From Mermis nigrescens (Eukaryota; Nematoda; Enoplea; Mermithida; Mermithidae), in assembly GCA_036768485.1 (NCBI GenBank), contig JAVLUZ010000143.1, forward strand, positions 1,173,633 through 1,237,632: a DNA stretch of 64,000 nt. The letters run 5' to 3'. The notes beneath the pieces were generated by a model, which was given only the letters and a program-made list of their open reading frames with translations, was not told where the DNA came from and did no database searches. Position numbers and translations under genes: made by a program. Below, in pieces: positions 6,821-64,000 of the stretch (its first letter is position 1; every line of letters starts with the position of its first letter).

Positions 6821-6955
6821 AAATTCAGCCAGTGATGCTCTAGGTTTTTGTGATATGCTTCTTTTGATATGTGCGTAATAAGCCTTGTTTCAATTGATGT
6901 CACAATAAATAATTGAAATGATGTGAGTCTACTTCAAGATAAGGGTCAGCTTTTA

Positions 6956-36222: not shown

Positions 36223-37278
36223 TGTAAATACAGAGGTGCCCTATGTGTACAAAGACGACATAGGACACGTGTATTTGCCTTCGAGATTTACCTAGGTACG
36301 TAGGTACTTAAGTCTACGCTTAGTGCTGGCCCCGATCGCGCGGCTCTGATGGCTTTCGATCTTTGGACCCTTACAGACCTTACGGCTTCGATCCCCTCAG
36401 CCCTAATATTGCTGGCCGCTTTTATGTCGGGTGATCTCAGCAGCTACGCCCTAAGACCTAAGGCTACCTACCTAGTCTCGGAATTTGCCGCGGAGGTCAG
36501 TTGACCTATCTCAAGCTCAAGTTGTTATTTAACTTATTTTCAATCAGTGCCTGATCAGAAATGTTTTCGGTTCCTAATTTGTGTAGCACGCTGAACAATG
36601 AAAACAACAACAACGAGCTCTATGCTGATCAATCATCCTTAAAGATTAAATAATAATTTTGATCAATTTTTGGCTTGAGAAATAAATTATGATTTCCGAA
36701 TAAAATAAACTATCATACGAAATTTACCTATCAGTCCACTAGATGGGTGGAAATCCTCGACGTAGGGATGGTGGCCGACCTAACCCTCGGTATAACCAAA
36801 AACCACTGGGTAGGTTTTCTCTATTTTTATTCGACGCAGAATTCACGGCCTATAGCCGGACAACAAAATACGCAAAAGAAAAACGACAATGTACAGATTA
36901 TACAGTCGAACAACCGGCCAACGAAAAAACCAAAAGCCAGACTAAACTACAACGTTACGTACACTGGCCTCAAGGACCATTACAGTAAATTAAAGAAAGA
37001 TCAATTTAACGTAATACTGATAAGCTTTTATCTCAGATCGAATATTCTCGATTGCACAAGCGGTATGCATGAAACAATTACTATTATCATACACTTAACT
37101 CTATGCTACCGGACAAGTATCTAAATGTTTTTTATTATTGAAAATTTGGGGAAATAATGGGAAGACCGAAGGCATAGCCCACAGTGCACTATCATAGATA
37201 GCTACTAGTATTGGCTATGTTATGGCTATCGCGAACTGCTAAGGCAAGTTCGCCTACCGTGTAACTCTCGCAGTTACA
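36223..37278 (-). repeat. 3' LTR of copy 1 (1056 bp)
   Basis: TGTAACT at 37278 to TTTACA at 36223 on the minus strand. It is nearly identical to the LTR at 57461-58523, and more different from the LTR at 52927-53978 (compare 36743-36775 with 53450-53480). It holds the inverted AGGTCA repeat at 36494-36507. Confidence 0.92.
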
Positions 37279-37287
37279 CTCCCCCAC
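37279..37287 (-). promoter_or_regulatory. Polypurine tract of copy 1
   Basis: GTGGGGGAG on the minus strand abuts the LTR start TGTAACT. This purine run would prime plus-strand DNA synthesis. The same nine bases occupy 58532-58524 in copy B. Confidence 0.85.
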
Positions 37288-38069
37288 GTATAGAAAAAAA
37301 TTTGAAACGTAGTGGAGAATTTTTTCGGGGGTACAAACAACGCCACTAGCGTCGGCGACGCTCTATAACTCGGCTCTCTGGCGTTCGCAACGCCTCAACT
37401 CCGGCGTCCGCAACGCCTCATCCTGAGCGAACGTGAAAAACGAAAATAAAAAGAACGAAAAAAATAACAAATATCGATAACCGGTAACGGTCAACGCATG
37501 ACCTCGTTCGCACTCAGGAAAACTCTCGAGCAACACTCACAATGGCGCTAGGGATAACTATATTGTTGCCCGAGTAATGATGAACTCCGGTCTTGGACAG
37601 TTCATCCGCTGTCTCATCAGCCTCCTTCAGTCCCCGGGTAATGAGAAAAATTTTGAATTGAAAAAATTTGTAGATTGGGTATAAATTAACCCCTTGTCCG
37701 TTAAAGAGTTAAGGTACCATAATAGTAACACCGCTAATTGAGCAAAAGACAAATTAAAATACGGAATGATAAGGCAAAATTATGCTGAGCAAAAAATTAA
37801 AGACACTGACGAGTTAAAACACGAGGTAACGATAAAAACGAGAAAAATGGCAATTATGCGAGATAACGAGGAAAAATACGAGCACCGTCAAAGAAAAATT
37901 TTTACAGCAAGAGAAAAATGACGAGAGAAAAAATACACATGAAATAAACGATACACGAAGTCCTGGAATCCACATCAGGACGAAAAACGAAAAAAATTGA
38001 CAAAAAGCTGCTGGTCGAAGTCGACGCCGTCGCAGAGTTCCAAAAGTTCAGTACGTCGAACTTTGTAAA
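37288..38069 (-). other. 3' untranslated region of copy 1 with three hairpins
   Basis: Between the third ORF and the polypurine tract. Three short perfect stems follow each other: GCGTC-GGC-GACGC (37349-37361), GGCGTT-CGC-AACGCC (37380-37394) and GGCGT-CCGCA-ACGCC (37403-37417). The remainder is A-rich. No protein seen. Confidence 0.65.
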
Positions 38070-41000: not shown

Positions 41001-42225
41001 TCAGCTAAGATTAACTCTTCGCCATTCGAATCGACTTCAGCGTCAGCAGCTGTGCTGGTCGACTGCCCTTGTGGTGGCTTACTAGTCGACAACGGTATAC
41101 GCACTTTGGCTTTCGGGCCGCTAGCCCTAATGTACAACTCATCGCCTACGAATGAAACCGACATGGGTTTTCTATCGTCAGTAATGCGATTATCTTGCAT
41201 GCACCCTTCTATCAATATAAAAACATCGATAGTTATGAGGGCGTCCATCGCTAAATAATGCTGCATGTCCTGAGTTAAGGGTAAGCTCCATGCCTGTCCG
41301 AAGTTATCAGACGCGTTCGGATCAATATACATGTCAAAAAAGAATTCGGCCAAGCGCTTTAACGAGTGTGACTGCGCTTTAATGCGTAAACGACACGTAA
41401 ACGCTCTTGCCAATGGCTGAATATCAATGAAATTTGCAATGAATGGATCTTTCCAGTGCAGTTTATTACAAATTTCTGCATCCGGAATAGCCAAAATTTC
41501 CTCAAAAGTTGGCCCGTAAACATGGAAATACGCAAGTCGATCTTGCGTCGGGTCATAACAAACCATATACACATTAGGTAAGCGCTGTTTCGAGCAACTG
41601 GTGAAGCCCGAACGGAGGTTGCGGGAACTTCGCTAGATCCCAACAGAACACATGGCCGTTCGCGCTTGCAACTTGGACGTAGCGTACGAATGGGCCATGG
41701 AGGTCCTGGTAAGTGGGACATAGTTGCTGAAAACACAAGTCCCAGGTCTTATAATGCCTGCCTTTTCTGTCATTCACAAATTCGGAGTCATAGCCTAAGA
41801 ATAAAGTGCCATTTGTCATATTCGATGGCTGAATTAACGCCAAAATGGCGCCAAACTACTTCTGGTCATTGGAGACTATGACGGTGGGTAGAAGTCTGTT
41901 CTTTGGTACGCGAGGGTTACCAAAGGAAATCTACCAAGCCAATTCTCCCACCAGAGTTGTTGGTCGTTAATACGCTTTTTATGATTTGTGATTTTATGTG
42001 CTGCTTTATGCTTTATCCATTTTGCGGTAAGTGATTCTAGACCGCCAACACGACTATTATCGTTTTGGGGCAGCGGGTCTGGTACAACCAAGCCCCGCTC
42101 CAAAGCCATACTGGTCAATGCCGAACGAAACTCATCTAGGGACGCGGGATCATGCCCTCAAATTTGCATCAGCGACCAGCTGCCTCCAGCAATGCCTCCT
42201 TGCTTGGGGTACCTTGTGCAGCCAT
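38070..42225 (-). pseudogene. Third ORF of copy 1 (exonuclease-domain protein), frameshifted
   Basis: Colinear with the intact frame 63471-59320. The ATG is at 42225, directly after the same TTTTTCCTTTTGCAG. Compared with copy B, single-base losses near 42157 and 41910, an extra base near 41583, and changes near 40170-40280 split it into pieces (42118-41876, 41843-41574, 41572-40127, 40130-38070). All five DEDDy residues survive (DSE, Asp of YDPTQD, YLAMD). Several indels are in short homopolymers, so sequencing error cannot be excluded for some. Confidence 0.85.
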
Positions 42226-42660
42226 GGGTCTGCAAAAGGAAAAACATTAGATAATGGTACGGCATGTGCTGTTTTAGAACCATTTAATAAACGTACAGGC
42301 GCGCAGTCCTTAGCTTTTTGTTCCCTGCCCGGTAAATCCTCAAAACTTATGACTACTGCCGGGGCAAGAGGGCGATGTGGTAATTTTACCAACACAAAAT
42401 CGCCAGGGACATACGCGTGTTTTTCCACAATTAAATCAGAATAAGGTAGTTTAGGTTCAGGCAGAAGTCTATTCCTGTGAACGTGATGAATGATGAGAGG
42501 GTTATAGACATATGCGATTTTCGCAGTTTCAGGCGTAGGTAAATCAATAATTCGGTATGGACCAACACGCTTGGGTGATAGTTTACCGATTTCTGGTTGA
42601 ATGACTGAGGTATTATTAAGATAGACTATATCCGAGAGATTAAAATTTGTGTGCGTTACG
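42150..42660 (-). pseudogene. Integrase C-terminal module with GPY/F motif, copy 1
   Basis: On the minus strand near 42580 the frame reads KLSPKRVGPYRIIDLP, the GPY/F motif found at the C terminus of many Gypsy integrases. It continues to a HVHRNRLLPEP string and then a short beta-rich tail (YVPGDFVLVKLPH) ending at 42150. The tail overlaps the start of the third ORF in another frame. It likely aids DNA binding or target choice. Copy B has the same module at 63381-64000. Confidence 0.8.
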
Positions 42661-43660
42661 GACTTGTCATATTACGATTTTTGCTGCTTACGCGCTTGAG
42701 TTAAATTTTGAGACGCGATTTCATGCAGATCTTGTAAAGTCAGCTTTAAATCAATGACATATTTTTCCGCAACAGATGGTAAATTCGGATTTATTACGAA
42801 GTCATTTATAAGTAAGGTGTCAAGAGGAAATGCTGGTTCACGACCATAAAGCATTTCAAAAGGAGATATATTAGTCGATGATTGCGGAGTCGCGCGGTAT
42901 GCAAATAATGCGAAAGGTAGAAATTGCTCCCAATCATACTGGGATCGCGCACTCAGCTTAGACAAACAATCAATCAAGGTGCGATTATAACGTTCGACCA
43001 ACCCATCACACTGGGGGTGATATGGGGTTGTAAATATTTTCTGAACGTTTAATAGTTTGCAAACTTCCGAAATAAGGGTAGATGTAAAATTTGACCCTGA
43101 TCTGTCAAAAATTTCTTGGGAACTCCATAACGTGGTATAATTTCTCTTAGTAATAAATTTGCAATAGTTGTTGCTTTTATGTCAGAAACAGCAAAAGCTT
43201 CCACGTATTTTGTAAAATAATCCATAAAAACTACAATTTGGTCATTTCCGGAGGGAGATCGCGGCATATGCAAGCAATCGCACGCAATGAGTTCAAAGGG
43301 CGCGGATACTTCGATTGGTTGCAACGGAACGGATGTGGAATTTAATGCGACCTTACGTTGTAAGCACACATCACAATTCCGACACCACGCGATCACATCA
43401 TTTTCCATGCGCGGCCACCAATAACGCATTTGTATGGCGGGCAAGATTTTGCGCGATGAAAAATGAGCTCCGAAAATAGAGTCATGAAATTCCGTTAATA
43501 TAAAACGACGCAAAGATTTGGGTATGACTATTTGATGAACGACAGTTGGTGAACGCTTAGGTTGAAAACGACGAAAAAGTACATCGTTTACGAGAAAAAA
43601 TTCGTCACGATATTTTTTCGTTGTTAAGTCATTCAATGCGATGCGAATTTTATGCAATTC
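42660..43660 (-). pseudogene. Integrase core of copy 1
   Basis: The frame 43657-43049 holds the zinc finger (HDSIFGAHF ... CRNCDVCLQ, about 43490-43360), the first catalytic Asp (ELIACDCLHMPR, about 43280) and the second (KFLTDQG, about 43095). The frame 43001-42672 holds the catalytic Glu (MVERYNRTL, about 42995) and the FEMLYGREP string. One frame break lies between, at about 43050-43005. All D,D,E residues are present. The enzyme would insert the cDNA with a 4-bp stagger, as at the solo LTR. Confidence 0.88.
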
Positions 43661-43676
43661 GTCATCTGCACGTTGC

Positions 43677-44084
43677 TCAGCGAGTAAACGCTGCAGGTGT
43701 TAGCATTTCAGCTTTTTCGGCATCGGTAAGTAACAAGCGTTCACGAAATGTAGGTGGTTTAGAATTAGTAGGATCGGTTTGCGCAGTAGGATTATTATTT
43801 TGCGCATTTGGATGATTAATTGGTGCAGTAGGCGCATTATTGCGCGATCGGTCAGGTGGAGCCGATTCATCATCTGACTCAGAATCTTCCGATTCTAAAT
43901 TTGCGATGTTAACGACATTTTTGCGCTCTACTTTATATTTGCGTTCTGCATGATCATATTTAGGATGTCGTGAAAGAAGATCAGCTGCGCAGTTATATGC
44001 ACCAGGAACGTAAACAATATCATATTCGTATTCCTGTAATTTGAGACTCCCAACGGCGTAATCGACTCGATGGGTCTTTAACAT
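43677..44084 (-). pseudogene. RNase H end and acidic/proline-rich linker, copy 1
   Basis: Starts with the end of RNase H (VDYAVGSLKLQEYEYDIVYVPG, about 44060-44000; YVPGAYNCAADLLSR is the usual closing motif) and runs into a low-complexity acidic and Asn/Pro-rich linker before integrase. Separated from the RT frame by a one-base shift near 44060. Confidence 0.75.
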
Positions 44085-45245
44085 TTACTAGCCAGGTTAA
44101 CGCTTGATGATCAGTTTCGACAATAAATTTTTTACCGTAAAGATAATGTCGATAATGCTTGATGGCCCACACTACCGCTAACGCTTCTTTTTCCGAAGTA
44201 GCATAGTTACATTCGGCAGAATTTAGCACGCGACTAGCGTAGCTAAGAATAAAACGATTTTTGGATGGTAAATGTTTTTGTATCAAAATAGCACCTAACG
44301 CATAATTACTTGCGTCAGTTGTTAAAATAAATTGGTGCTCATCATCGAATTTTGGTAATTGCAAAATAGGTGGGGACGTAAATGCTTTCTTCAGAAGCTC
44401 AAAGGCGGTTTGGTGTTCAGCCTTCCAGCAAAATTCGACATCTTTACGAAGAAGATGGAATAGCGGTTTAGCGATTTTAGCGAGATCTTTAACGAATTTC
44501 TTAAACCATTGGACTAAGCCAAGGAATTTCTGCAAGGATTTAACGGTTTTTGGTACGGGAAACGAGATTAAATCTGCAACTTTTGACATGTCAGGAGCGA
44601 TGCCCATTGCACTTATACTGTGGCCAAGAAATTTTACCTCTGCATGCGCAAGATGGCATTTATCAGGCTTTACACGTAAGTTTGCCTTTTTAAGAGCAAT
44701 GAAGACATTTTCAAGATCTTTTAAATGTTCTTCGAAAGTACGTGAAAAAATAATTATGTCATCGATGTAAACGAGACAAGATTTCCAATTTAGACCTGCG
44801 AGCACAAGCTCCATTAGTCTTTGAAAATCTGCGGGCGCATTTTTAAACCAAAAGGTAAAACTTCAAATTCGTAATGACCAACAGGACATATAAATGCTGT
44901 TTTTTCGCGAGATTTATTATCGAGTGGAATTTGCCAGTATCCAGATTTCAAATCTAGTGTGCTAAAATATGCAGCACTGCCTAAAGTATCGAAATAATCG
45001 TCTAATTGTGGAAGAGGATAAACTTGCGTTTTAGTAACGTCATTTAACCGTCGATAATCGACGACTGGCCTAAGGGAACCGTCCTTTTTTCCAATGAGAA
45101 ATAATGGACTTGCCCATGGGCTAGTTGTAGGTCGAATAATTTTATCCGCAAGCATTTCATTTATAATTTTCTGCATAGGATTCTCTTCTAGAATGTTCAA
45201 CACGATAAGTTTTTCCAACAACGGGTGGATTATCCCCTGTGTCAA
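44020..45245 (-). pseudogene. Reverse transcriptase and RNase H, copy 1
   Basis: The frame 45245-44814 contains SPWASPLFLIGKKDGSLRP, VVDYRRLN, YPLPQLDD and LPFGLK; the frame 44814-44020 contains the catalytic VYIDDIIIF box (44775-44758), FLGLVQWFKKFV, TTDASNYALG of RNase H (about 44330) and ATSEKEALAVVWAIKHYRHY. These are the standard Ty3/Gypsy RT and RNase H motifs with intact catalytic Asp residues. A frame break at about 44815 falls within the normally conserved FGL-APQ-FQ motif. Synthesises cDNA and degrades the RNA strand. Only one or two indels prevent full reading. Confidence 0.92.
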
Positions 45246-46603
45246 TATGATGTTTCATCAAGGGGGTACGTCCGAGAGGTTCATTTTTTAATGCAAAAAT
45301 TGAGTCGTATTTTAAGCAAAGTTCACGAATTTGTTGCTGCTGTCTAGAATCAACGGCGGAGCCGTTTAGAGCTTTATTTATTGATGCAAAAAGTTCTGGT
45401 GTCCTATCATCAAAGGATGAAACATGTGACACGACTTCGGCATCAGAGGTTAAAGAACCTATTATTTCACCAGAGTCAATGCGAATTGGCGCTTTGGAGA
45501 TATTACAAACGCGAACAGGTATTAGAGGTTGTGAAGCATCGACTATAGATGGAGCAACAAAAAGTGAAGTTTTTTCCATAAAATCGGGATTTGGTTCGAA
45601 TAATGCGAAATCAAAATTGCAAGAACCGTGACTTATATAGCCAGGTGTAATTAATTCATGCCTAGGTTGTATAATAACAGGCTCAGGTAACGAAACATGC
45701 ACACACACAACACCAGAGGTAGTTGCGTTGGGTTTCGCACGAAATTGCAATTTTTCATGAGATGAGAGTAAATTGATCTTTATGCCGTTTATAAAAGCAC
45801 AGCGCTCAATAGGATTAACCCACATGAGTGCGGATTCGCAAAAATCATATCCTAAGAGCATGTCTTCCGGCAAGTGATCAATTATAGATACTGAGGTAGA
45901 GATAGATTGTTCCGCGATGGTTAAAGTCATATTTACTCTGATAACGAACTACTGCAGTGATTTCGCCTACACCATGTACGACTTGTGAAACTTGTTTAGG
46001 TGGTAAATTAAAACCAAGACGTAAGAATGCAGACGTGGTCATCATGGTGACCTGTGAACCCGTATCTATGAGAGCAGGTACGTCAACGCCATGAACCTTA
46101 ACTAGGATGGTGGGTAAGTTTGTCCCAGCATGGCTTACAATAGGAATATTAGGATCTAAAGTCTTAGATGGAGGTAGATTAATTTTCTCATAGGTTGCAA
46201 GACGACGTTGTAGACGTTCGTACTCTTCAAGAAATTCTTGCGATGCGAATAAATTAGGACGCGCGCTAGATTCTGGCCCTTTCGCAGTAACCGTGTTTAC
46301 ATCATGAGGAGATGTAAGGGTTGGCTGCGGTGGGGGCACATTCATGGCGGGTTGGTTGTCTGCAGTATATGTGACATACGGGCGATTGAAATTGTTATCG
46401 CTGCGATAATTAGAATTATAGTATGTCCCACGCTGTTCATTTGGGAATTGCACAAAAGGTGTATTTTGGCGCGGTTGATTATTATAACGATTATCGTAAC
46501 GCGAATTTTGATAATTAGCACGCGAATTTTGGTAATAATCATTACGATTTTGCCAAAAATTCGATCGTGATTGCTTTGATTCAAAGCGATTATCATTATT
46601 CAC
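45157..46603 (-). pseudogene. Protease and RT linker, copy 1
   Basis: The frame 46603-45878 begins in an Asn/Arg-rich gag-pol linker and includes the protease active site ALIDTGSQVTMM (about 46070-46045). The frame 45930-45157 carries LPEDMLLGYDF (about 45870) and a long spacer before RT, including HHIDTGDNPPV (about 45250), the conserved pre-RT motif. A frame change near 45900 separates them. It would cut Gag-Pol. Confidence 0.85.
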
Positions 46604-48870
46604 ATAGTTAGATGAGCGATGTTGACTAGAGGTACGATATCGTGATTGAGATCGATGTCTATTCTGTGAATTCGAACGCGATGGCGAGCAATTTCGACGC
46701 GAAAAGAACGCAATTGACTGCGATTGCGCACCATAGAATTAGTATTTTGATCAGTTTGGGTATTATGATTAGCATTATTAGACGTTTCTTGCCTTTGACG
46801 CGTGAAACATTCCTCATAAATGTGACCTATGCGCTTGCAAAAGGTGCAATATTTACGAGAAGAATTTTCTGGTTTCTCAGCACGCAATGAGCGATGAAAC
46901 GTTCGATGACGTGAACGATTTGGATCATTTTGGTTAGATGCGCGAGGAGTATCTTTAGGTACTACGCTGCCTACTGGAGCAGCTGTTACCAATACGTAAG
47001 GCGTTACTGCCTTTTTATCCTCAAATTCTTTATTAGCAAATTCAGCGCTTAGCGCATTGTCCGAAAATTCAGCTAATGATGCTCTAGGTTTTTTATGATA
47101 TGCCTCTTTCGAAATGTGTGGTAATAAACCTTGTTTTAGTTGATGTCGCATTAAATTATTGAAATGTGGCGAGTCAACTTCAAGGTAAGGATCAGATTTA
47201 ATTAACTCTTCGCGAATGAGAGATAATAAGCTTTAACCGATTCGTTAGGCTGCTGTTTGTGTGACAAAAAACGATTAAAGAGCGCACCGGTGTCCATAGG
47301 ACAAAATTCGGCTTATTAGCGCTTGGTTCCAGCTTTGAGCAAGATTGTTGTAGTATCAGCAGGTAACAAATGGGGTAGAACGCAAAACATAAGGGTCAAG
47401 AAATCCAGTAGCGAATTTTAAACGATCAGCTTTGTCAATATCATAGGTATTGGCAAAGTCTATCTCAAATTCTGCAAAATATGCCTTTATATCTGATTTA
47501 TCGCATGCTGTGTACTTTTTATTGCAATTGCAAATTGCATCTGCTGCAAAAATGGGTCCGCGTTATCTAGCTGAATCCAGTGAGACGCGAGTCACTGCGC
47601 TAAGCTTTCAGATGAAGAACCTGAACTATGCCGATGACGTCAGTCTCGCGCGATCGAGATCATGCCGACGCGAGCGACGACTGTGCGGGCGATCATAACG
47701 ATGAGATGAGCTTTCGTCAGAAAATTCGACATGTTTTCTCCTACTAGATGATTCAGGTAGGGATGCAGATTCATTTGCAAATTTGCAGATTCGTTGTTAG
47801 ATGCCAGATAAATTTATCTCAACCGGTTGCATTCTCAGGTACTAGAAGAATGCAAAATAGGATTACTAGGTGGTAATTTCACGTTCATGGGATGTAGTAC
47901 ATAATTATTGGCCAAAGATTTCTCCTTGAGGTGGAAAATACTGCAGCAGTGTGGATTTAATTGCTACTGCGAATTCGTAGTGAAGGATTAGGTACGAAAA
48001 GAAGGCGCGTTACTGATTTACATGACAGCGTAGCGCTGAGATCGCGACGTTTGCGAAATCGGTACCGACGGCTAAGTCGGAATCAAGAGGGTATATTTTC
48101 TGAAAACCCGAGTTTAAATGATTGCAAACCAAGCCGTCATAGAATCAGTGACATAATATAGAGATTCTAGGTACGCATCGACATGCAACCTTGAGAGATA
48201 TTGTAATGCTTCACAGAGAGCATGACCGACGCTCTGTTGCTAGTAGACAATAGTGGAAGATGGCACGATGCGTATTTTGCAGCAATTGTACTTCGACCCC
48301 GAAAACATTAAATTTACTGATCGATTGATTGTATAACGTGTCAGATGATTATTTTCAGTGCGATTCAAAACTGTTGTGGTTCACATACGTTTCAGCTCCA
48401 GATGTGTTTATATTTCATCCGCAGTTTCTTGATCTTGATCAACGCGCTATAGGGTCCGAAAGGTCAGCGAACCAATAGGCTTGTAGCGCTTAAAATAAGA
48501 TCATTAGTCAGCATTAGCATTAGCGTTGCTCTTTGTCGGTGATTTCATGCACACGATCTATGATTACTTTCACGTCAGAATCGGATTTTGCGCTCCGCAC
48601 TGGTTTCAGGATTATTTGCCGTGTTAACGGGTATGTCGTGACTATCAATCATTGTGTGACTTGATTAATTCGTCAATATTAGGTCCGACCCAGCCGAATC
48701 GAAAATTGATTAATGCGCGCATGTACCTAGTCGTCAACAACAGTTCATCTTCAGACTGTGATTGCTCGTCGGCATGTAGTGACGCGGGTAATTTATCATT
48801 ATTCGCCTTAGTAGTTACTGTCTTCGTAATCGTGTCATTACCCGCAGGAATTACACCGCTATTAGAGGTC
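46600..48870 (-). pseudogene. Gag of copy 1
   Basis: The frame 47151-46600 holds a CTFCKRIGHIYEEC zinc knuckle (C-X2-C-X4-H-X4-C, about 46855-46815) after a Lys/Arg-rich stretch. Upstream, 47151-48870 aligns with copy A gag but is full of stops and indels, so the capsid cannot be read. The decay is much heavier than in the third ORF of the same copy. Confidence 0.75.
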
Positions 48871-49430
48871 AACAGGCGCAGTAGGTAATTGGCGAGCTGA
48901 AGCAGGTGGCACGGAAGGTTTTTTTCAATTTAGCGCGGTGTCCGCAAAACCTTTTTCCTGCCATTTTAGGTATCAAAAAATGTCGAAAAATGGACTTTGG
49001 AAAATAAATTCAGTGACGTTGAAATTTTTCCCAAAATAAATGTTTCGAATCGAACTTTGTCGATCCGGAAAACAGGTCTTTCCACGCAGAATAGTACTCT
49101 CCTTCACGTGAAGGTAAGACATACCTAGACGCAGAAACGATTCGCAAGCAAGATAGGACCAAGCCTCGAAGCGCAAGAACGTGCAGCACGCGGGTTTGTA
49201 GTGAAAAGAGGTAGGGGAAGAAACCCGAAACGACTAGGAAATTCGTTCCGTCGGGCTTAGGGGGGGAGCGTTCATCGGTCACGTCTGAGGGTCAGACACA
49301 GGCGGTGTAGTGGGGTCGCGAGCTGCGGAGGAGCCGCCGCCGTCCGAAGAAGAGATCCGACGGAAATAGAAAAGGCTCAATGACTCTACCACTCTGACAC
49401 ATCAAAATCTTTCACCACGGACGCTTCACT
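48871..49430 (-). other. Leader of copy 1, inner part
   Basis: Aligns with copy A at about 8640-9115, including the ACCACGGACGCTT string next to the LINE. Frames here (49176-48973, 49282-49010) are not conserved in copy A and are not credible. Confidence 0.55.
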
Positions 49431-52400
49431 GGGGTTGCACCACTGCAGCTGTTCCAGACCACCAGAGCTGAGTGGCACGCGCCCCCGGGTGGCGGATAGG
49501 AAAGCTCCTACGAGTAGCATTTATGCTATTATGGCTAACGGAGTAGTGTCTTCGGACACCGCGGACCACTGGTGGACCCTTGGGTGTGGCGAGCCCTTGT
49601 GGTATTCAAGCTGAAAAACATCATGAAATGGCACAGTACAATCTCCGCAGTCGAAATGCTACGGCGTACCCGGTAGGCGACGCAAAGTTATATGATGTTG
49701 TAAAAAGTGTCGAACATGGCTTTACTAGCTTAAATCCCAACGGGCCCTTTCAAGGCCAATGAGTTCTAGCACACTTAATGTGCGTACCTTGCTTCAAACA
49801 GGCCAGCAATCACTACTGGCAAAGACCTTCATGATAGAAAGGCTGACGTATGTTGTCTGACTGAAACACGACTACTAAATAATGGAACAACTGTATTAAA
49901 GCGGTTCCCTCAGCCAAGGATAGCTTTTAAAATGTATTATAGTGGACCAGTGGGTACTGGTCAACATAGGTGATGTCAATGTCCTTTATCCACATAGAAT
50001 CACGACTAGCTCATACATGCAGCTGGAACCCAATCAGTGAACGTCTGCAGTGCATGCGCTTTACAGCAATAAAATGTTTACAACAGTTATTGCACATATG
50101 CTCCAACAAATGCTGCTGCAGACAATGATGCTGAAGCCTTCTGCTGCAGCTCAAAGATGAAATAGTGTAAAAGCCAAAAGAATACCTCTCATATTAGAAG
50201 GAGATTTCAATGCTTTCAGCTATTGTCCGAGTTCAATAGAAATGTTGTCGGGCAACATTCTGTTGGTCGCAAATGCAGAAATGGCTCACTTCTGTTCAAA
50301 CTCGCCACAACTTACAGCTTAATGATTACAACCACATTCTTTATCATAAACTGAGACACTTAGACAGACCTGGATCAGCCTTGATGTTCAACACAAAACA
50401 AATCGATTACGTCCTAATCAAGCAGAAATATAGGAATCCCAGTCATTGATAGCCGAGCTTCTGGGATTAAACGTAGTCACTGACCACGCTATGGTTGGCT
50501 CAGAGGTAAACCCTAAACCGGTTTTCCCTAAAAAAGTAGAAACTGTCCAACGCTTTGATGTTGCTCAACTAAAATGCCCCGTGATAATGGAAAAATTCAA
50601 AAGATCATGCTCATTTAACCTCGATAAAGGGAACTCCAGCCCAAGTACAAGACTCTCCCGAGAACTACTGTGTCAAAAATAAAGGAAGCTGTATCTGAGG
50701 ACTGCAAAAACGACATTGGCTACACGAAACCTGCACGTAACGACTGGATCAGCGCAGATACCATCAATCTCTCTAATGAGCGTAAGCTTGCAGTGGCCAA
50801 TCAAAAACATGATACAGCAAAAGTACTTGCTAGAAAAATTAAACAACAGGCACGCAAGGATAAAGAGGTTCATTGGAATCAAAAAAGCCTTTGGAACTTG
50901 AAAGAGCTAGAGATACAGGTGATTCCAAGAAGCTATTCCAGTTGATGAAGGACCTGCGAGGAAATACACTCAACCAATCAGTAGATGCAATCTCTGACAT
51001 GAAGTGGTAATTTAATTTGCAACAAAAGCGCCAAAGCTCAATCAATGGGTTCAACATTTTCTGGAGTTACTCAACAATGCACCTCTTTCCTGCTATTCAA
51101 CATCACATTGTATTGCCAGCACCGACAATGTATAATGTCCAAGAAGGACCACCAAATCAGATGGAAATTACCAAGGTAATTAAAAGTTTTCGAAGTGGAA
51201 AAGCCCCAGGTGCCGATGGTATCAATCCAGAAATCTATAAATGTTGCAAAGAGATACTAGTAGCCTTACCTTGAGCAACTCTTCAAAGGTATCTGGACAA
51301 CAGAGAGCATACCATCCGATTGGGAAACGGCAATATTAATACCAATACGCAGTAAGAAAGGCGATAGGATTAAATGTAAAAACTACAGAGGTATTTCCCG
51401 GTTAAACATTGCCTATAAAATCATGGAACGAATCCTACTTAACAGGCTTGTTACCGAAAGGACATGAGAACTAGAGAAAATCAGGCCGGATTTAGACCAG
51501 GAAGAGGTTGTATTGACGCAGACTTTTTCGCTCTAGCGTCAGTTATTGGAACTTAGGCATGAATTTCGTCAAGAATCACATGTTGCCTTCATTGACTTCA
51601 CAGCCGCATTTGACAGCATAGACCGATCTAGTATATGGTTCCAACTCGAATCTGATGGAGTTCCACCAAAGTTATGCTCAGCTTATAGCTGCCCTTTATA
51701 AAAGGACAATATGCAAAGTCCGTGCCTATGGAAGCTTTAGTGTATGAATTTGAAGTTTCAACTGGGGTCAGACAAGGAGGAATTCTCTCTCCTCTTCTAT
51801 TCAACTATTGTCTAGATCATATTCTAGAAACAGCATTCACAGAGTCACCGTATGGTATTATTTTGCAATCCTTCAGGCAAAAGTTTATCAGATCTTACTT
51901 TTGCTGATGATATTGCCCTTCTAGCAGAATCACAAGCCGATCTACAAGCCATGCTGAATACTATCCAAAGAGAAGCCCGCAAACATCGGACTAAAAATAA
52001 ATCCTGCAAAGACCAAGTATTTGACATCTGGTAGCCCTGACCATGCACTCAAAATTAGGTGACGAAAGTATTAAGTTAGTCAATTCCTTCACTTACCTAG
52101 GATCTCAAATAACAACAACAGGAGGAGACTCCCGAAGAAACAATAGCTAGAGTCAGGAAGGCTGCAAATACTTTTAGTGTACTACGAAGCTTGTTGAAAA
52201 GAAAGGACGTGGCATCAAACAAAGATCCGCATATATTGTGCAACAGTTAGAGCCACCCTGCTATATGGATCAGAAACATGGCCAGTAAGAGTCGAAGACA
52301 CAAAAAGACTTGAAACATTTGACTACAGATGCCTTAGACGTATCCTTGGAATTCATTTCCCAATGCTTATTAAGAACAAAGTAATCCTTGAACAGGCAAA

Positions 52401-52759
52401 AATTCCAAACATATCAGAAACCATAAAATGCGGCGCTGGAAATGGTTCGGACATGTCCTAAGGATGCCAGAAGAACGTATGCCAGCTCTAACATTCATAA
52501 GTACAAACCATGCAACATGGAAAAGACCCAAAGGAGGTGTAAGACAAACAATGCATCGATTACTGCATAAAGAAGCCGAAGAGATTATTCTGAAACCGTT
52601 CAACCTGAGTCGAAAAGAAAACAACAAAAGCTGGATCAAACATCTGACCACGCTAGCCTCAGACAGACTGCAATGGAAAGAACATTATCCAACGACTGTA
52701 GTCAACATGATGTCCCGAACAGAGCAATGCTGTCCTGTGAATCGGATTAAGCAAGTAAG
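49431..52759 (+). mobile_element. Non-LTR retrotransposon (LINE) inserted in the leader of copy 1
   Basis: The empty site in copy A (about 9115-9135, GACGCTTACTTAAATG) shows that this 3.3-kb block is an insertion. CACT stands on both sides (49427-49430 and 52760-52763), a short target duplication. The order endonuclease (about 50100-50560), RT (about 51150-52060), C-terminal segment (to about 52760) is that of an APE-type LINE. The 3' end is TAAGCAAGTAAG, not poly(A). The C-terminal MRRWKWFGHVLRMPEER string is common in RTE-like and related endonuclease/RT elements; the clade is not fixed. Confidence 0.85.
49580..50680 (+). pseudogene. LINE AP endonuclease remnant
   Basis: Broken frames. LNVRTL near 49775 matches the opening motif, LILEGDFNAF near 50200 contains the catalytic GDFNA, and VVTDHAMVGSE near 50480 gives the terminal S/T-D-H motif. 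The endonuclease would nick target DNA to prime reverse transcription. Many stops lie between. Confidence 0.75.
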
Positions 52760-52770
52760 CACTTAAATTG
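50670..52770 (+). pseudogene. LINE reverse transcriptase remnant
   Basis: Motifs in order: KSFRSGKAPGADGINPEIYK (about 51183), ENQAGFRPGRGCIDA (about 51475), GVRQGGILSPLLFN (about 51762), LTFADDIALLAES (about 51892, catalytic FADD) and RRWKWFGHVLRMPEERMPAL (about 52430). Frames change at least four times. The frame at 52428-52766 is the C-terminal piece. Copies RNA at the nicked target. Confidence 0.88.
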
Positions 52771-52926
52771 CGCACTGCCACGATCGCTGGTCGATACAAC
52801 AACAAAGGTGAACGAAATGTTACACATTTTTAGATGGCCAAAATGATAATTTTTGGATCGAAAAATAATTTTACGATGATTGATCAGCTCGGCTGTAGCT
52901 AGCAGCCTAAAGGAGGGAACATCCAA
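52764..52926 (-). other. Leader of copy 1, outer part
   Basis: Uninterrupted here, and therefore the empty site for the Helitron-like insertion of copy A (A-T junction at 52817/52818). Includes GGCTGTAGCTAGCAGCC, a near-palindrome next to the expected primer site. Confidence 0.7.
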
Positions 52927-53978
52927 TGTAAATGTAGAGCCGCCTTATGTCTACAGAGAATCGACATAGGACGGATACATTACCTTCGAGATTTACCTAG
53001 GTACGTAGGTACTTAAGTCTGCGCTTAGTGCTGGCCCCGATCGCGCGGCTCTGAATGGCTTTCGATCTTTGGACCCTTAGAGACCTTACGGCTTCGATCC
53101 CCTCAGCCCTAATATTGCTGGCTGCTTCTATGTCGGGTGATCTCAGCAGCTACGCCCTAAGACCTAAGGCTACTTACCTAGTCTCGGAATTTGCCGCGGA
53201 GGTCAGTTGACCTATCTCAAGCTCAAGTTGTTTATTTAACTTATTTTCAATCAGTGCCTGATTCGAAATGTTTTGGTTCCTAATATGTGTAGCACGCTGA
53301 ACTATGAAAACAACAACAACGAGCTCTATGCTGATCAATCATCCTTAAAGATTAAATAATAATTTTGATCAATTTTTGGCTTGAGAGATAAATTATGATT
53401 TCCAAATGAAATAAACTATCATACGAAATTTACCTATCAGTCCACTAAGACTGGGAAGAAATCCTTGACGAGTAGATGCCCGACCTAACCCTCGGTATAA
53501 CCAGGAACCACTGGGTAGGTTTTCTCTATTTTAATTCAACGATGAATTCACGGCCTGAAGCCGGACAACAAGCAAAAGAAAAACGAAAACGTACGGACTA
53601 TGTCAACGTACGACTGGCAAACGAAAAGCAAAAACGCCAGACTAAACTACAACGTTAAGTACACTGGCCTCAAGGACCATTACAGTAAATTAAACAAAGA
53701 TCAATTTAACGTAATACTGATAAGCTTTTATCTCAGATCAATTGTTATCGATTACACAAGCGGTATGCATGAAACAATTACTATTATCATACACTTAACT
53801 CTATGCTACCGGACAAGTATCTAAATGTTTTTTATTATTGAAAATTTGGGGAAATAATGGGAAGACCGAAGGCATAGCCCACAGTGCACTATCATCGATA
53901 GCTACTAGTATTGGCTATGTTATGGCTATCGCGAACTGCTAAGGCAGGTTCGCCTACCGTGTAACTCTCGCAGTTACA
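52927..53978 (-). repeat. 5' LTR of copy 1 (about 1052 bp)
   Basis: TGTAACT at 53978 to TTTACA at 52927. Motif order as in the other LTRs, inverted AGGTCA repeat at 53200-53213. Several small differences from the 3' LTR at 36223, including a changed segment at about 53450-53480 and a shorter stretch near 53560. Confidence 0.9.
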
Positions 53979-54130
53979 CGAGTTAGAAATGAGTGTGTGA
54001 AGTGTAAACCGAAAAATCAAATAATTTGCAGAGGACTAATTTTTTTGAAGTGTTGCCCCCAAACTGTAGATTACGAAGCTGACCTTAAAATTTCTTTACA
54101 CTCAATGGTTGTTGCACAAAAATGTAAAGT
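53979..54130 (+). repeat. Fragment of Helitron-like subfamily D
   Basis: GAGTTAG-AATGAG, GTGTAAACCGAAAAATCAAATAATTTGC and CTTTACACTCAATGGTTGTTGCAC match 26480-26640 of copy D in order. The LTR junction at 53978 falls inside this match. Confidence 0.7.
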
Positions 54131-57460: not shown

Positions 57461-58523
57461 TGTAAATGTAGCCGGTTCTGATCTGGGTCTACAGAATCAT
57501 CACAGATACGAACCGTACTAACATTCACCCTCGAGATTTACCTAGGTACATAGGTACTTAAGTCTACGCTTAGTGCTGGCCCCGATCGCGCGGCTCTAAT
57601 GGCTTTCGATCTTTGGACCCTTAGAGACCTTACGGCTTCGATCCCCTCAGCCCTAATATTGCTGGCCGCTTTTATGTCGGGTGATCTCAGCAGCTACGCC
57701 CTAAGACCTAAGGCTACCTACCTAGTCTCGGAATTTGCCGCGGAGGTCAGTTGACCTATCTCAAGCTCAAGTTGTTATTTAACTTATTTTCAATCAGTGC
57801 CTGATTCGAAATGTTTTTGGTTCCTAATTTGTGTAGCACGCTGAACTATGAAAACAACAACAACGAGCTCTATGCTGATCAATCATCCTTAAAGATTAGA
57901 TAATAATTTTGATCAATTTTTTGGCTTGAGAGATAAATTATGATTTTCGAATAAAATAGACTATCATACGAAATTTACCTATCAGTCCACTAGATGGGTG
58001 GAAATCCTCGACGTAGGGATGGTGGCCGACCTAACCCTCGGTATAACCAAAACCACTGGGCAGGTTTTTCTATATTTTTATTCGACGCAGAATTCACGGC
58101 CTATAGCCGGACAACAAAATACGCAAAAGAAAAACGATAATGTACAGTCGAACAACCGGCCAACGAAAAAACCAAAACGCCAGACTAAACTACAACGTTA
58201 CGTACACTGGCCTCAAGGACCATTACAGTAAATTAAAGAAAGATCAATTTAACGTAATACTGAATCACTTTTATCTCAGATCGAAAGTTCTCGATTTACG
58301 TAAGCGGTATGCATTAAACAATTACTATTATCATACACTTAACTCTATGCTACCGGACAAGTATCTAAATGTTTTTAATTATTGAAAATTTGGGGAAATA
58401 ATGGGAAGACCGAAGGCATAGCCCACAGTGCACTATCATAGATAGCTACTAGTATTGGCTATGTTATGGCTATCGCGAACTGCTAAGGCAGGTTCGCCTA
58501 CACGTGTAACTCTCGCAGTTACA
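57461..58523 (-). repeat. 3' LTR of copy B (1063 bp)
   Basis: TGTAACT at 58523 to TTTACA at 57461, nearly identical to 36223-37278. The inverted AGGTCA repeat is at 57744-57757. The segment 57470-57530 differs from other copies. Confidence 0.92.
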
Positions 58524-58532
58524 CTCCCCCAC
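58524..58532 (-). promoter_or_regulatory. Polypurine tract of copy B
   Basis: GTGGGGGAG on the minus strand, directly before the LTR, identical to copy 1. Confidence 0.85.
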
Positions 58533-59319: not shown

Positions 59320-62300
59320 TTAATATTGATCGCGGTAATTGGCCTTCGAGCCATACGATTTTCCGCGACGTCGTTGCCGTTGAAAATATTCCTGATCCGA
59401 TTCCGGTTCGCGACGCGTATTCGAACGCTCACGATACTGATATGGCAATTGCCTACGCCCGTACATATGCTGGCGTAAGCGTCGATGTGGATCGACGGGT
59501 CGATCATCGTCCTCAAAATCGTCGTCGTCCTCGTAGTCGTCCGCGTAACGACGCGGTATAGGTGGCGTCGGAGTAAATAATTGCTCCGGCGTAAAACCGT
59601 AAGTTCGTTGGCGAGAAGGTTTGCGTGGACGCTGTTGTTGTTGAGTAACAGGCCACGGTTTGGGCAAAAGTGGACCCGGTCGAGGTTGTGGCTGATAGCC
59701 CCCGGTGGCTGGTTGACTTTGTTCCAACGGTGAGCGATACGACTGGTCCCATTGTTGACGTTGACGGGATTGTGACCGGCCCCGATGAGTTCCGCGGTTC
59801 GACTGTGGCGGACGGCGATATTCATAAGGCTGCTGCTGTCGCGAGCGCGACAGATGACCAGCATCGGCCTGAGAATACGCCTCGGAACGCTCACGCGATT
59901 CCGTGAATTGCTGCTGTTGCCGCGGTTGGGTCTGCGGTCTTGTGTGTTGCTGTACATGCGGTTTTACTTGTGTCTGTTGCTGTGCTTGTGATTGTGAACG
60001 GTGGTGCGTTTGCGCATAGCGCTGCCGGGATGACTGCGGGTCTTGCCGCCTCGATCCTCTTTGGCCTAAACGCGCTTTTAACTTAGCTGCAACTTCAGCT
60101 TGAACGAGTCTTCTAACTCGTTGTTTTTCCAAATTCTTCAACCGACGCAAAGTGTGCTCGGATTTAGTATCGTAAAAACGATTCAATTTGGCCTTGTGTT
60201 TGTCTTCTGACATGTGACGAACTTCTGAAGACTCAGCAAGAGAACCGGCGGCGCGTAACTTTGTCGCACGCCGTGGCATTTCCGTTGCCAAATTCTCACA
60301 ATCGCGTTGCTCGATCGTCATGCGTGTTCTACGCATTGCAATTTGTGCTTCCAAGGAAAGATCGACTTCGGGCATATCAAGGCTTGCTGCGGATCCGCTC
60401 GGGTCCTGCGAGGATGCCTGTTGCCTTTCTTTACGAATTTTTTCTAATTCGCCTTGTATTCGATGTTTGAGGTAAAATACAGATTTTTGCTGACCTCTGA
60501 AACGATCGAATTGAACAGGAACTTCGAGTGGCGGGTCGGTAGCTAACCGAATTTGCCTAATCATGTTATGTAAAACATGAGGACTTTCAATTCGTGCTGT
60601 TAAGTCCGGGAATTCCGGAAAAGCCTCACGTGGCGATGGCGTGTAAGATTCGCCAAGAAATGCTACGCGCAACATGCGACGCAGCTGTTCCGCCATGCGC
60701 CAACCTATTGCGGCATTGCCGTAGGCGTACGCAAAGAAATGGAATTTCCTATCCAAGAATTCCAAAAGCGCTGTAGCGCGCATGACGTCTATTGAAGAAA
60801 AGATCGTCATGTGTCGATACTCCGACTCGTATAATGACTGAAATTCTCGGAAAGTATCGAAAATATCGACCATTTGACGTGTCGATATTAAAATGGGTGC
60901 GAGGTGATCCGGCGCTGGAGACATTCTGTGCGGATATAGATCCGGACGAATCTGATGTGTAACGCCGTCGATCACCTCGCTTGGTGCGTCAAGGTGTGGG
61001 TGTACGACCAAATACTCGAGCGGAACCTCGTATAACATCATTCCGGTTGTGATAAAAAACCGTATGCGCACGAAGTATTGGTTGGGGTAAAATAATCGGT
61101 TAAACACGCTCATTTTGCTAATAAACCAAGGTGCGGGCTCACGATCGGCTTCAGCCAAGGGCTGTGCGAGTGTAGACCACACTAATGGACGCGAGGGCGA
61201 GTCAGTCAAAGTCGCGTACTGCAAATGAATTGCGTACACTCGATCGAAGTACACTTGAGCAGCTTCGACCAACTGATCGTACAAACGCGATCCTGCGACC
61301 TCACCCAAATAGGAACGTAAATTGTGCAAAACGACTGGCGCAATAATGCACGGTGGTTCGCGCGTCATATTTTCCATCATGGTGAAAAAATGCTGTACGT
61401 AGCGTGAGCGATTTTGTACTCGAGCGTTTTCATTCGCGGACATCTGGTCGCGAATAGCTTGAACGTGCGCAGGTATTGCGACTTCCATATTTGATGATTG
61501 GCTTTGCATAGCCTGTGGTTGCAAATTTGCCACGGTACTAGACACACCCGTCATGGCCATAGGAGCCGTGAAACGAGTATCCGGTGCCGACGTACCTTGT
61601 GGCACGGGCTGAGTCGTGACTTGCGTGTATAATGCTACTTGTGGTACTTCGTGTGCAGCTAGAGTACGTTGTGTTTGCGGCGGAAAACCAATAATCTCGG
61701 TCATGATGACGTCAGGGTCAGTTTGACGCTCTGCCCCAACCGGCTGAGGAGTCGGTAAAGGTCCAAGCGAACTGATACCCAAGGGTGCTTGTTGAGCCGC
61801 CGCAAGCGATTGCGAGACAATCGGTTGCGAAACGGTAACAATCCCTTTTCGAGCCATTGCTCCGCGTGTTACACGCGGTGGCAACACGTTAGCCTGTCTT
61901 TCCGCCTCGGCGTCAGATAACGCCATCACTAAACGTTTGGGAGATAAATCATCGTCTTCAGTGGAGATCGATGGTTCTACACCAACCATAGGCGAATCGT
62001 AGGGAATATCGGTTTGCGAAGAAAACACAGAAGCTGGTGTACTCGAGCTAGTCGGTTTTGACTTAGGTTCCGTGTCAGGCGCATTGACCGGGCCCGAAAC
62101 TGTGTCGGCAACGGTCTGCAAAGCCTGCACTTGTAAGTCAGGATTGTCAAACACGTTAGCGTGAGCCAACGCTTCCGTTACTGAGGCAATGGTGGTGGCT
62201 GCCGCTATAGCTACTGGCGGTTGCGGAGCTGGGCAATAAAAGTCCTCAGCTAGGATTAACTCTTCGCCATTCGAATCAACTTCAGCGTCAGCAGCTGCGC

Positions 62301-63471
62301 TGGTCGACTGTCCTTGTGGTGGCTTACTAGTCGACAATGGTATACGTACTTTGGCTTTCGGGCCGCTAGCCTTAATGTACAACTCATCGCCTACGAAAGA
62401 AACCGACATGGGCTTTCTATCGTCAGTAATGCGATTATCTTGCGAGCACCCTTCTATCAATATAAAAACATCGATAGTTATGAGGGCGTCCATCGCTAGA
62501 TAATGCTGCATGTCCCGAGTTAAGGGTAAGCTCCACGCCTGTCCGAAGTTACCAGGCGCGTTCGGATCAATATACATGTCAAAAAAGAATTCGGCCAAGC
62601 GCTTTAACGAGTGTGACTGCGCTTTAATGCGTAAACAACGAGTAAATGCTCTCGCCAATGGCTGAATGTCAATGAAATTTGCAATAAATGGATCTTTCCA
62701 GTGCAGTTTATTGCGAATTTCTGCATCCGGAATTGCCACAATTTCCTCGAAGGTTGGCCCGTAAACATGGAAATACGCAAGTCGATCTTGCGTCGGGTCA
62801 TAACAAACCATATATACGTTAGGTAAGCGCGTTTCAAGCAACTGGTGAAGCCCGAACGGAGGTTGCGGGAACTTCGCTAGATCCCAACAGAACACATGGC
62901 CGTTCGCGCTCGCAACTTGGACGTAGCGTACGAATGGGCCATGGAGGTCCTGGTAAGTGGGACATAGTTGCTGAAAACGCAAGTCCCAGGTCTTATAATG
63001 CCTGCCTTTTCTGTCATTCACAAATTCAGAGTCGTAGCCTAAAAATAAAGTGCCATTTGTCATATTCGATGGTTGAATTAACGCCAAAATGGCGTCAAAC
63101 GACTTCTGGTCGTTGGAGACTATGACGGTGGGTAGAAGTCTATTCTTTGGTACGCGAGGGGTTACCAAAGGACATCTACCAAGCCGATTCTCCCACCAGA
63201 GTTGTTGGTCGTTTATACGCTTAGTATGATTTTTGACTTTATGTGCTGCTTTATGCTTTATCCATTTTGCGGTAAGTGATTCTAGACCGCCAACACGACT
63301 ATTATCGTTTTGGGGCAGCGGGTCTGGTACGACCAAGCCCCGCTCCAAAGCCATACTGGTCAATGCCGAACGAAACTCATCTAGGGACGCGGGATCACGC
63401 CCCTCGAATTTGCATCGGCGACCAGCTGCTTCCAACAATGCCTCCTTGCTAGGGGTACCTTGTGCAGCCAT
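59320..63471 (-). CDS. Third ORF of family G: DEDDy 3'-5' exonuclease-domain protein (1383 aa)
   Basis: Residues about 120-345 match the RNase D/WRN exonuclease layout: Exo I FLGYDSEFV (D147, E149), Exo II VCYDPTQDRLAYF (D229), FIDIQPLAR, a SLKRLAEFF helix, W-SLPLT, and Exo III HYLAMDALITID (Y324, D328). Such enzymes remove nucleotides from 3' ends using two metal ions. Residues about 360-670 are Pro/Ser/Thr-rich and probably disordered. Residues about 670-1010 look folded and helical but match nothing I know. The end (about 1100-1383) is Gln/Arg-rich with an acidic cluster (about 1310-1323), suggesting RNA binding. No signal peptide or membrane segment is evident, so it is not a typical Env. 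The start is favoured by the splice site four bases upstream; the frame has a stop just before it. The function in the element is unknown. Confidence 0.9.
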   Translation of the reverse strand: MAAQGTPSKEALLEAAGRRCKFEGRDPASLDEFRSALTSMALERGLVVPDPLPQNDNSRVGGLESLTAKWIKHKAAHKVKNHTKRINDQQLWWENRLGRCPLVTPRVPKNRLLPTVIVSNDQKSFDAILALIQPSNMTNGTLFLGYDSEFVNDRKGRHYKTWDLRFQQLCPTYQDLHGPFVRYVQVASANGHVFCWDLAKFPQPPFGLHQLLETRLPNVYMVCYDPTQDRLAYFHVYGPTFEEIVAIPDAEIRNKLHWKDPFIANFIDIQPLARAFTRCLRIKAQSHSLKRLAEFFFDMYIDPNAPGNFGQAWSLPLTRDMQHYLAMDALITIDVFILIEGCSQDNRITDDRKPMSVSFVGDELYIKASGPKAKVRIPLSTSKPPQGQSTSAAADAEVDSNGEELILAEDFYCPAPQPPVAIAAATTIASVTEALAHANVFDNPDLQVQALQTVADTVSGPVNAPDTEPKSKPTSSSTPASVFSSQTDIPYDSPMVGVEPSISTEDDDLSPKRLVMALSDAEAERQANVLPPRVTRGAMARKGIVTVSQPIVSQSLAAAQQAPLGISSLGPLPTPQPVGAERQTDPDVIMTEIIGFPPQTQRTLAAHEVPQVALYTQVTTQPVPQGTSAPDTRFTAPMAMTGVSSTVANLQPQAMQSQSSNMEVAIPAHVQAIRDQMSANENARVQNRSRYVQHFFTMMENMTREPPCIIAPVVLHNLRSYLGEVAGSRLYDQLVEAAQVYFDRVYAIHLQYATLTDSPSRPLVWSTLAQPLAEADREPAPWFISKMSVFNRLFYPNQYFVRIRFFITTGMMLYEVPLEYLVVHPHLDAPSEVIDGVTHQIRPDLYPHRMSPAPDHLAPILISTRQMVDIFDTFREFQSLYESEYRHMTIFSSIDVMRATALLEFLDRKFHFFAYAYGNAAIGWRMAEQLRRMLRVAFLGESYTPSPREAFPEFPDLTARIESPHVLHNMIRQIRLATDPPLEVPVQFDRFRGQQKSVFYLKHRIQGELEKIRKERQQASSQDPSGSAASLDMPEVDLSLEAQIAMRRTRMTIEQRDCENLATEMPRRATKLRAAGSLAESSEVRHMSEDKHKAKLNRFYDTKSEHTLRRLKNLEKQRVRRLVQAEVAAKLKARLGQRGSRRQDPQSSRQRYAQTHHRSQSQAQQQTQVKPHVQQHTRPQTQPRQQQQFTESRERSEAYSQADAGHLSRSRQQQPYEYRRPPQSNRGTHRGRSQSRQRQQWDQSYRSPLEQSQPATGGYQPQPRPGPLLPKPWPVTQQQQRPRKPSRQRTYGFTPEQLFTPTPPIPRRYADDYEDDDDFEDDDRPVDPHRRLRQHMYGRRQLPYQYRERSNTRREPESDQEYFQRQRRRGKSYGSKANYRDQY

Positions 63472-64000
63472 GGGTCTGCAAAAGGAAAAACATTAGATAA
63501 TGGTACGGCATGTGCTGTTTTAGAACCATTTAATAAACGTACAGGCGCGCAGTCCTTAGCTTTTTGTTCCCTGCCCGGTAAATCCTCAAAACTTATGACA
63601 ACTGCCGGGGCAAGAGGGCGATGTGGTAATTTTACCAACACAAAATCGCCAGGGACATACGCGTGTTTTTCCACAATTAAGTCAGAATAAGGTAATTTAG
63701 GTTCAGGCAAAAGTCTATTCCTGTGAACATGATGAATGATGAGAGGGTTATAGACATATGCGATTTTCGCAGTTTCAGGCGTAGGTAAGTCAATAATTCG
63801 GTATGGACCAACACGCTTGGGTGATAGTTTACCGATTTCAGGTTGAATGACTGAGGTATTATTGAGGTAGACTATATCCGAGAGATTAAAATTTGTGTGT
63901 GTTACGGATTTGTCATATTGCGATTTTTGCTGCTTACGCGCTTGAGTTAAATTCTGAGACGCGATTTCATGCAGATCTTGTAAAGTCAGCTTTAAATCAA
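63381..64000 (-). CDS. C-terminal part of pol (integrase tail with GPY/F), copy B, partial
   Basis: Open on the minus strand from the window edge to a stop at 63381. It contains KLSPKRVGPYRIIDLP (about 63820), the GPY/F module, then HVHRNRLLPEPKLPY and a compact tail (YVPGDFVLVKLPH ... ADPWLHKVPL). The last 91 bases overlap the beginning of the third ORF in a different frame. Catalytic integrase residues lie outside the window. No frame break is seen, unlike copy 1. Confidence 0.85.
   Translation of the reverse strand, partial: DLKLTLQDLHEIASQNLTQARKQQKSQYDKSVTHTNFNLSDIVYLNNTSVIQPEIGKLSPKRVGPYRIIDLPTPETAKIAYVYNPLIIHHVHRNRLLPEPKLPYSDLIVEKHAYVPGDFVLVKLPHRPLAPAVVISFEDLPGREQKAKDCAPVRLLNGSKTAHAVPLSNVFPFADPWLHKVPLARRHCWKQLVADANSRGVIPRP
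63472..63490 (-). promoter_or_regulatory. Putative 3' splice site before the third ORF
   Basis: On the minus strand TTTTTCCTTTTGCAG ends at 63476, four bases (ACCC) before the ATG at 63471. A pyrimidine tract followed by CAG is a good acceptor. It is identical in copy 1 (AG at 42231-42230). It lies within the pol frame, so the unspliced RNA would read through it as pol. Confidence 0.6.

What the first reader, a model, noticed from the sequence alone, without database searches (positions are those of the whole stretch)
59320..63471. Gypsy retrotransposon with its own RNase D/WRN-type exonuclease
A 1383-codon frame in the env position carries every DEDDy residue in correct order and spacing: D147 and E149 (DSE), D229, Y324 and D328 (YLAMD), plus the supporting SLKRLAEFF and W-SLPLT strings. 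Seen: the motifs. Known: DEDDy enzymes are host RNA/DNA nucleases, and MUT-7-like members act in small-RNA silencing; viral DEDD exonucleases elsewhere serve proofreading or immune evasion. Inference: the element may use it to trim cDNA or RNA ends, proofread, or blunt small-RNA defence. I do not know of a described Gypsy lineage with this arrangement.
Basis: partly seen in the sequence, partly recalled or inferred. Interest (0 to 1): 0.93.

Follow-up and report, generated by a model that had tools for sequence, protein, structure and literature searches.

The report
Jumping gene with RNA/DNA-trimming enzyme
A retrovirus-like jumping gene in what is probably a parasitic roundworm carries, where a virus would keep its envelope gene, its own member of a well-known family of enzymes that chew the 3' ends of RNA or DNA, an arrangement already described in bdelloid rotifers.

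The parts
59320..63471 (-). ORF3 of copy B, 1383 aa: DEDDy exonuclease + long linker + second folded-looking region + basic Q/R-rich tail
   Evidence: ORF; 34 scored copies, this one included; dN/dS; composition
62350..63183 (-). DEDDy 3'-5' exonuclease domain (ORF3 residues 97-374), the segment folded by AlphaFold2
63025..63033 (-). ExoI motif D147-S-E149
62785..62787 (-). ExoII D229
   Evidence: the profile position is aligned with WRN
62488..62502 (-). ExoIII Y324-L-A-M-D328
   Evidence: the profile position is aligned with WRN YAATD
59320..60174 (-). basic, Q-rich C-terminal tail of ORF3 (residues about 1100-1383); nucleic-acid binding inferred from composition
63381..63998 (-). C-terminal end of pol (integrase tail with GPY motif; runs off the window), overlaps the start of ORF3 by 91 bases in another frame
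63477..63650 (-). degenerate PWWP-like segment at the integrase C-terminus (18.5 bits, E = 0.003, below cut-off 25.6)
   Evidence: PWWP over the cut-off in sister lineages
63476..63492 (-). splice-acceptor-like TTTTTCCTTTTGCAG, 4 nt before the ORF3 ATG; suggests that ORF3 is made from a spliced RNA (inference)
58524..58532 (-). polypurine tract GTGGGGGAG directly before the 3' LTR
   Evidence: sequence
57461..58523 (-). 3' LTR of copy B (1063 bp, TG...CA); the matching LTR outside the window at C49:1244417-1245477 is 98% identical, so the element is about 14.4 kb (pairing inferred from strand and spacing)
36223..53979 (-). copy A: older, interrupted copy of the same family with both LTRs (36223-37279 and 52927-53979, 92.1% identical) and gag, pol and ORF3 remains
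41577..41855 (-). copy A: N-terminal half of its exonuclease domain, in a separate frame
40130..41632 (-). copy A: C-terminal half of its exonuclease domain and linker

Best explanation
ORF3 is an accessory gene of a large (about 14.4 kb) Ty3/Gypsy LTR retrotransposon and encodes a catalytically competent two-metal-ion 3'-5' exonuclease of the WRN/RNase D (DEDDy) family. Shown by sequence and modelling: the domain, its catalytic residues, its fold class, its constraint, and related frames in four deep Gypsy lineages of one genome. Inferred: activity itself; the protein is made from a spliced RNA (acceptor-like tract just before the ATG); its basic tail binds the element's RNA or cDNA; the exonuclease trims 3' ends in the element's replication (RNA ends, primer remnants or cDNA overhangs before integration). 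It is not an envelope protein.
Against: No activity, expression or splicing datum. The window ORF alone is below the Pfam cut-off. Four of the five residues look invariant partly by construction, because one search kept only frames with the ExoI and ExoIII motifs; copies with a changed ExoI exist (L018, L022). The printed WRN alignments cover ExoII and ExoIII, not ExoI. In six of 15 copy pairs exonuclease dS is 0.006 or less and the ratio is 0.28 or undefined; L002 and L003 are almost the same copy. Three recent pairs of other families give 0.40, 0.44 and 0.91. The model is of medium confidence, residues 144-167 under pLDDT 50. Acceptor-like tracts directly before the ATG were seen in 6 of 18 loci, five of them of the window's family. 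A replication role is argued from position and company only.
Confidence: 0.6

Rival explanations
1. Counter-defence: the enzyme acts in trans on host small RNAs or their templates, a mimic or competitor of host MUT-7/Nibbler, and blunts silencing of the element.
Against: No sign of small-RNA specificity in any call; no MUT7-C row in the Pfam scans of the window ORF3, the copy A fragment or ten related ORF3s.
Confidence: 0.17
2. Proofreading partner of the reverse transcriptase: removes mismatched 3' ends of the growing cDNA, which would help a 14 kb element.
Against: It is a separate frame behind pol, not fused to RT.
Confidence: 0.1
3. Non-enzymatic nucleic-acid-binding protein built on a dead exonuclease, like Egalitarian, EXD1 or Maelstrom.
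For: Egalitarian and EXD1 are among the matches; EXD1 and Maelstrom are described as inactive in a passage of PMC5408684; for Egalitarian this is recalled. Long basic tail.
Against: All five catalytic residues are kept at 20-25% identity in four deep lineages; ExoII D229 was not part of the selection filter and is still the same in 13 of 13 aligned rows.
Confidence: 0.1
4. An unrelated env-like or structural ORF in which the motif string is a coincidence.
For: The Pfam score of the single sequence is below cut-off; none of 5974 candidates scored E <= 0.01, none of 2905 scored E <= 0.001 with the alignment.
Against: no membrane-spanning segment in the window ORF3.
Confidence: 0.02

Closest known systems
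DEDDy-type ORF3 of Juno and Vesta LTR retrotransposons of bdelloid rotifers (Rodriguez, Kenefick and Arkhipova 2017, PMC5408684; abstract, passages and section 3.1 read)
   Same: LTR element with gag, pol and a third frame in the env position that encodes an RNase D-like DEDDy exonuclease without membrane domains; found in more than one pol lineage.
   Different: Host here is apparently a nematode; the catalytic set is D-E-D-Y-D (the paper says that DEDD is changed to DEED); ORF3 is 1383 aa with a second region and a basic tail; two sister lineages carry PWWP on integrase (the paper reports no chromodomain). Kinship of the two ORF3 groups was not tested, as the rotifer sequences were not in hand.
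Terminons / Athena Penelope-like elements of rotifers (passages of PMC6431247 and PMC5408684)
   Same: Retroelements with a DEDDy exonuclease frame.
   Different: Penelope-like RT, no LTR-integrase system.
WRN exonuclease domain, EXD2, MUT-7/Nibbler, RNase D (cellular DEDDy enzymes)
   Same: Fold and catalytic residues.
   Different: Cellular genes; identity to the model 16-20% in the WRN rows.
Chromoviruses (Ty3/Gypsy with a chromodomain on integrase)
   Same: Chromatin-reader type domain at the integrase C-terminus in two sister lineages.
   Different: The domain is PWWP, not chromodomain; degenerate in the window's own family.

Membership tests
DEDDy 3'-5' exonucleases (WRN/RNase D, PF01612) | D-x-E (ExoI), D (ExoII), Y-x3-D (ExoIII) in order | tested here: met
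   residues 147, 149, 229, 324, 328
DEDDy 3'-5' exonucleases (WRN/RNase D, PF01612) | Curated Pfam score reached by the window ORF itself | tested here: not met
   12.6 against 23.6 bits; reached by 6 of 10 related ORF3s, not by the two of the window's own family among them
DEDDy 3'-5' exonucleases (WRN/RNase D, PF01612) | Statistical kinship through a family profile | tested here: met
DEDDy 3'-5' exonucleases (WRN/RNase D, PF01612) | DnaQ-like fold | tested here: met
DEDDy 3'-5' exonucleases (WRN/RNase D, PF01612) | Metal-dependent 3'-5' activity | not testable with these tools
   needs protein
Ty3/Gypsy LTR retrotransposon | PR-RT-RNase H-IN order, LTRs TG...CA, purine tract | tested here: met
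   copy A; LTRs and tract
Ty3/Gypsy LTR retrotransposon | Target-site duplication and tRNA primer site | not tested
   flanks of copy A were read but not judged
LTR retrotransposons with DEDDy ORF3 (rotifer Juno/Vesta kind) | DEDDy frame behind pol in the env position | tested here: met
LTR retrotransposons with DEDDy ORF3 (rotifer Juno/Vesta kind) | dUTPase between protease and RT | tested here: inconclusive
   no dUTPase row among Pfam matches of copy A's 45157-45948; copy A is decayed
LTR retrotransposons with DEDDy ORF3 (rotifer Juno/Vesta kind) | ORF3 sequence groups with rotifer retroelement DEDDy | not tested
   rotifer sequences not in hand
Retroviral-type env | Signal peptide and membrane anchor | tested here: not met
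   highest 19-residue hydropathy of the window ORF3 is 1.68, and that stretch is the ExoIII helix; in L055 a stretch of 2.37 lies before the first Met, in L046 one of 2.06 lies in the exonuclease domain

The most novel reading that the evidence does not exclude
A whole guild of nematode Gypsy elements pairs an integrase that reads chromatin through its own PWWP domain with a trans-acting DEDDy exonuclease that edits host small RNAs or their templates, so that the elements carry both their own chromatin tether and their own counter-silencing nuclease.
Probability: 0.12. Interest if true: 0.88.

Novelty: new variant of a known kind. Interest (0 to 1): 0.52.

Why it matters
It moves DEDDy-bearing LTR elements beyond rotifers to a second phylum (if the host is the nematode Mermis), in at least four deep Gypsy lineages, with the catalytic set unchanged and, in the window's family, the codons under strong constraint. 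That makes the open question of the 2017 paper, whether the enzyme is active and useful to the element, directly testable with well-preserved proteins.

Tried and rejected
Single-sequence searches were too weak: PDB phmmer gave only unrelated rows; NCBIfam nothing and PHROGs only weak unrelated rows; the large protein database none at E <= 0.01 with residues 1-400 and none at 0.001 with alignment A1; viral contigs none.

A shared C-terminal helical module in the smaller ORF3s: four helices are predicted (residues 376-478 of the L040 frame) and a few columns are shared, but the profile comparison of two families failed (probability 0.7%, E = 0.081) and Pfam gave only sub-threshold rows. Left open.

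CpG decay as the reason why all 19 stops listed are TGA: CpG is not depleted (observed/expected 1.31-1.36 in ORF3) and CpG-site transitions are about twice as frequent (48 of 766 against 119 of 3999). Not explained.

Copy numbers of the sister families were asked for and never answered.

Env hypothesis rejected on hydropathy.

Full report
WHAT IS THERE. The 1383-aa frame is real and lies on the minus strand at 59320-63471. Directly upstream on the same strand a frame that runs off the window (63381-63998) is the end of pol: a weak Tf2-1-like SH3 hit, a GPY motif and a weak PWWP hit. It overlaps the start of ORF3 by 91 bases in another frame. Downstream come a purine tract (GTGGGGGAG) and a 1063-bp LTR, 57461-58523. 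A matching LTR lies 12.3 kb further on the same contig and strand (C49:1244417-1245477, 98% identical); three other contigs show LTR pairs at nearly the same start-to-start spacing (13,310-13,330 bases against 13,324 here), so I take the element to be about 14.4 kb (40 of 2634 candidates scored). A second, older copy of the same family is also in the window (36223-53979, LTRs 92.1% identical), broken into several frames and with LINE-like fragments next to its 5' LTR, and shows the pol order protease, RT, RNase H, integrase.

IS IT USED? The genome search scored 34 of 3971 candidates with the whole ORF3, the window's own included; all 34 match over nearly the full length at 93-100% identity, 23 have no stop, 11 have one to three. 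Among six intact copies (15 pairs) dN/dS of the exonuclease domain is 0.05-0.15 in the nine pairs with exonuclease dS above 0.05, and 0.12-0.27 over the whole frame in those nine; in the other six pairs dS is too low to tell (ratio 0.28 or undefined), and L002 and L003 are almost the same copy. In other families 11 pairs were tried: six gave no dS value, with dN 0.22-0.48, one had no difference at all, one distant pair gave 0.20, and three recent pairs gave 0.40, 0.44 and 0.91, as decaying copies would. ORF3 of the window's family therefore evolved as a protein under selection. A splice-acceptor-like tract ends 4 nt before its ATG in five of six window-family loci looked at (in the sixth, L052, the frame starts elsewhere and a similar tract lies upstream), and one abuts the ATG in L039; in all that is 6 of 18 loci.

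HOW WIDE? Of 20 related loci fetched I scanned the frame upstream of the exonuclease in ten, two of them of the window's family: 10 of 10 carry integrase domains, several also RT or RNase H, and all 10 ORF3s return PF01612 at E <= 0.011, six over the cut-off. In one fetched locus (L058) one search showed no frame with the motifs. Integrase and exonuclease identities both sort nine elements into four deep groups (window; L039/L040/L046/L057; L043/L044; L054/L055); the exonuclease diverges faster, and the two trees do not agree on the order of the groups. Whether this is one old capture or several is not settled; no outgroup without ORF3 could be fetched.

HOST. Mermis nigrescens is published as 524,220,005 bases in 867 scaffolds (passages of PMC10989877). 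The DB module, which I recall as nematode-specific, has 16 matches and rings in 0 of 14 control genomes, but the seven of these named are prokaryotes, so that control says little. I take the host to be this mermithid nematode; that is inference.

MECHANISM. Most likely an active DEDDy exonuclease that trims 3' ends of the element's RNA or cDNA. The basic Q-rich tail would hold it on nucleic acid. Rivals are counter-silencing, proofreading, and a dead binding domain. No call separates the substrates.

WHAT IS KNOWN. Rodriguez and others 2017 (PMC5408684; abstract, passages, section 3.1 read) report RNase D-like DEDDy ORF3s in Juno and Vesta LTR elements and in Terminons of bdelloid rotifers, gained at least twice, with DEDD changed to DEED and activity unproven; they already discuss 3'-end processing and a MUT-7-like silencing role. 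Two later texts name it as a rotifer feature (passages of PMC6431247 and PMC5718144); a third calls a DnaQ-like exonuclease domain a well-known accessory of LTR elements in general (a passage of PMC6338049), citing among others a 2017 paper by Ustyantsev and others, which I take to be the oomycete paper PMC5348765, where a term search found no mention of it. My searches for a nematode case listed none by title and abstract start; they cover open-licence PMC only. So this is a new variant of a known kind, not a new kind.

Noticed in passing
L043:808-2706, L044:1-2538, L055:4112-7201 (minus); degenerate in window 63477-63650: A PWWP domain at the integrase C-terminus of two sister Gypsy lineages (E = 1.6e-10, 9.3e-10, 3.6e-11, over the curated cut-off; strings such as GYPYWPAKV), with no PWWP row at E <= 0.05 in the L039, L040, L041, L046, L057 frames scanned. 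Paper search listed 3 papers, none of this kind; one search found 143 papers, of which I saw the 12 listed, none of this kind. An integrase with its own H3K36-type reader would be a built-in analogue of the LEDGF tether (recalled, inference).
   Followed up: partly
G000, 34 ORF3 copies: All 19 in-frame stops listed in 11 copies are TGA, none TAA or TAG; three rows share one score and may be one duplicated copy. CpG decay does not obviously explain it.
   Followed up: partly
window 59298-59957 and 38048-38713, minus strand: A second frame of 219-221 aa is open inside the ORF3 tail in both copies, although copy A is decayed elsewhere.
   Followed up: no
window 60442-61404, minus strand: ORF3 residues about 690-1010, a hydrophobic, probably folded region without a Pfam match; the smaller ORF3s of the other families (285-547 aa) are too short to hold it, but it was not searched on its own.
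   Followed up: no
window 5182-8842: An older relative of the gag-pol part of copy A (79% and 69% identity), same strand.
   Followed up: no
window 15461-16462 and 16554-17427: LTR-like copies in opposite orientations that form a large inverted repeat.
   Followed up: no
window 50434-52766, plus strand: LINE-like reverse transcriptase fragments next to the 5' LTR of copy A (assignment from reading the translation).
   Followed up: no
window about 4450-5180: A run of N (gap or withheld stretch).
   Followed up: no
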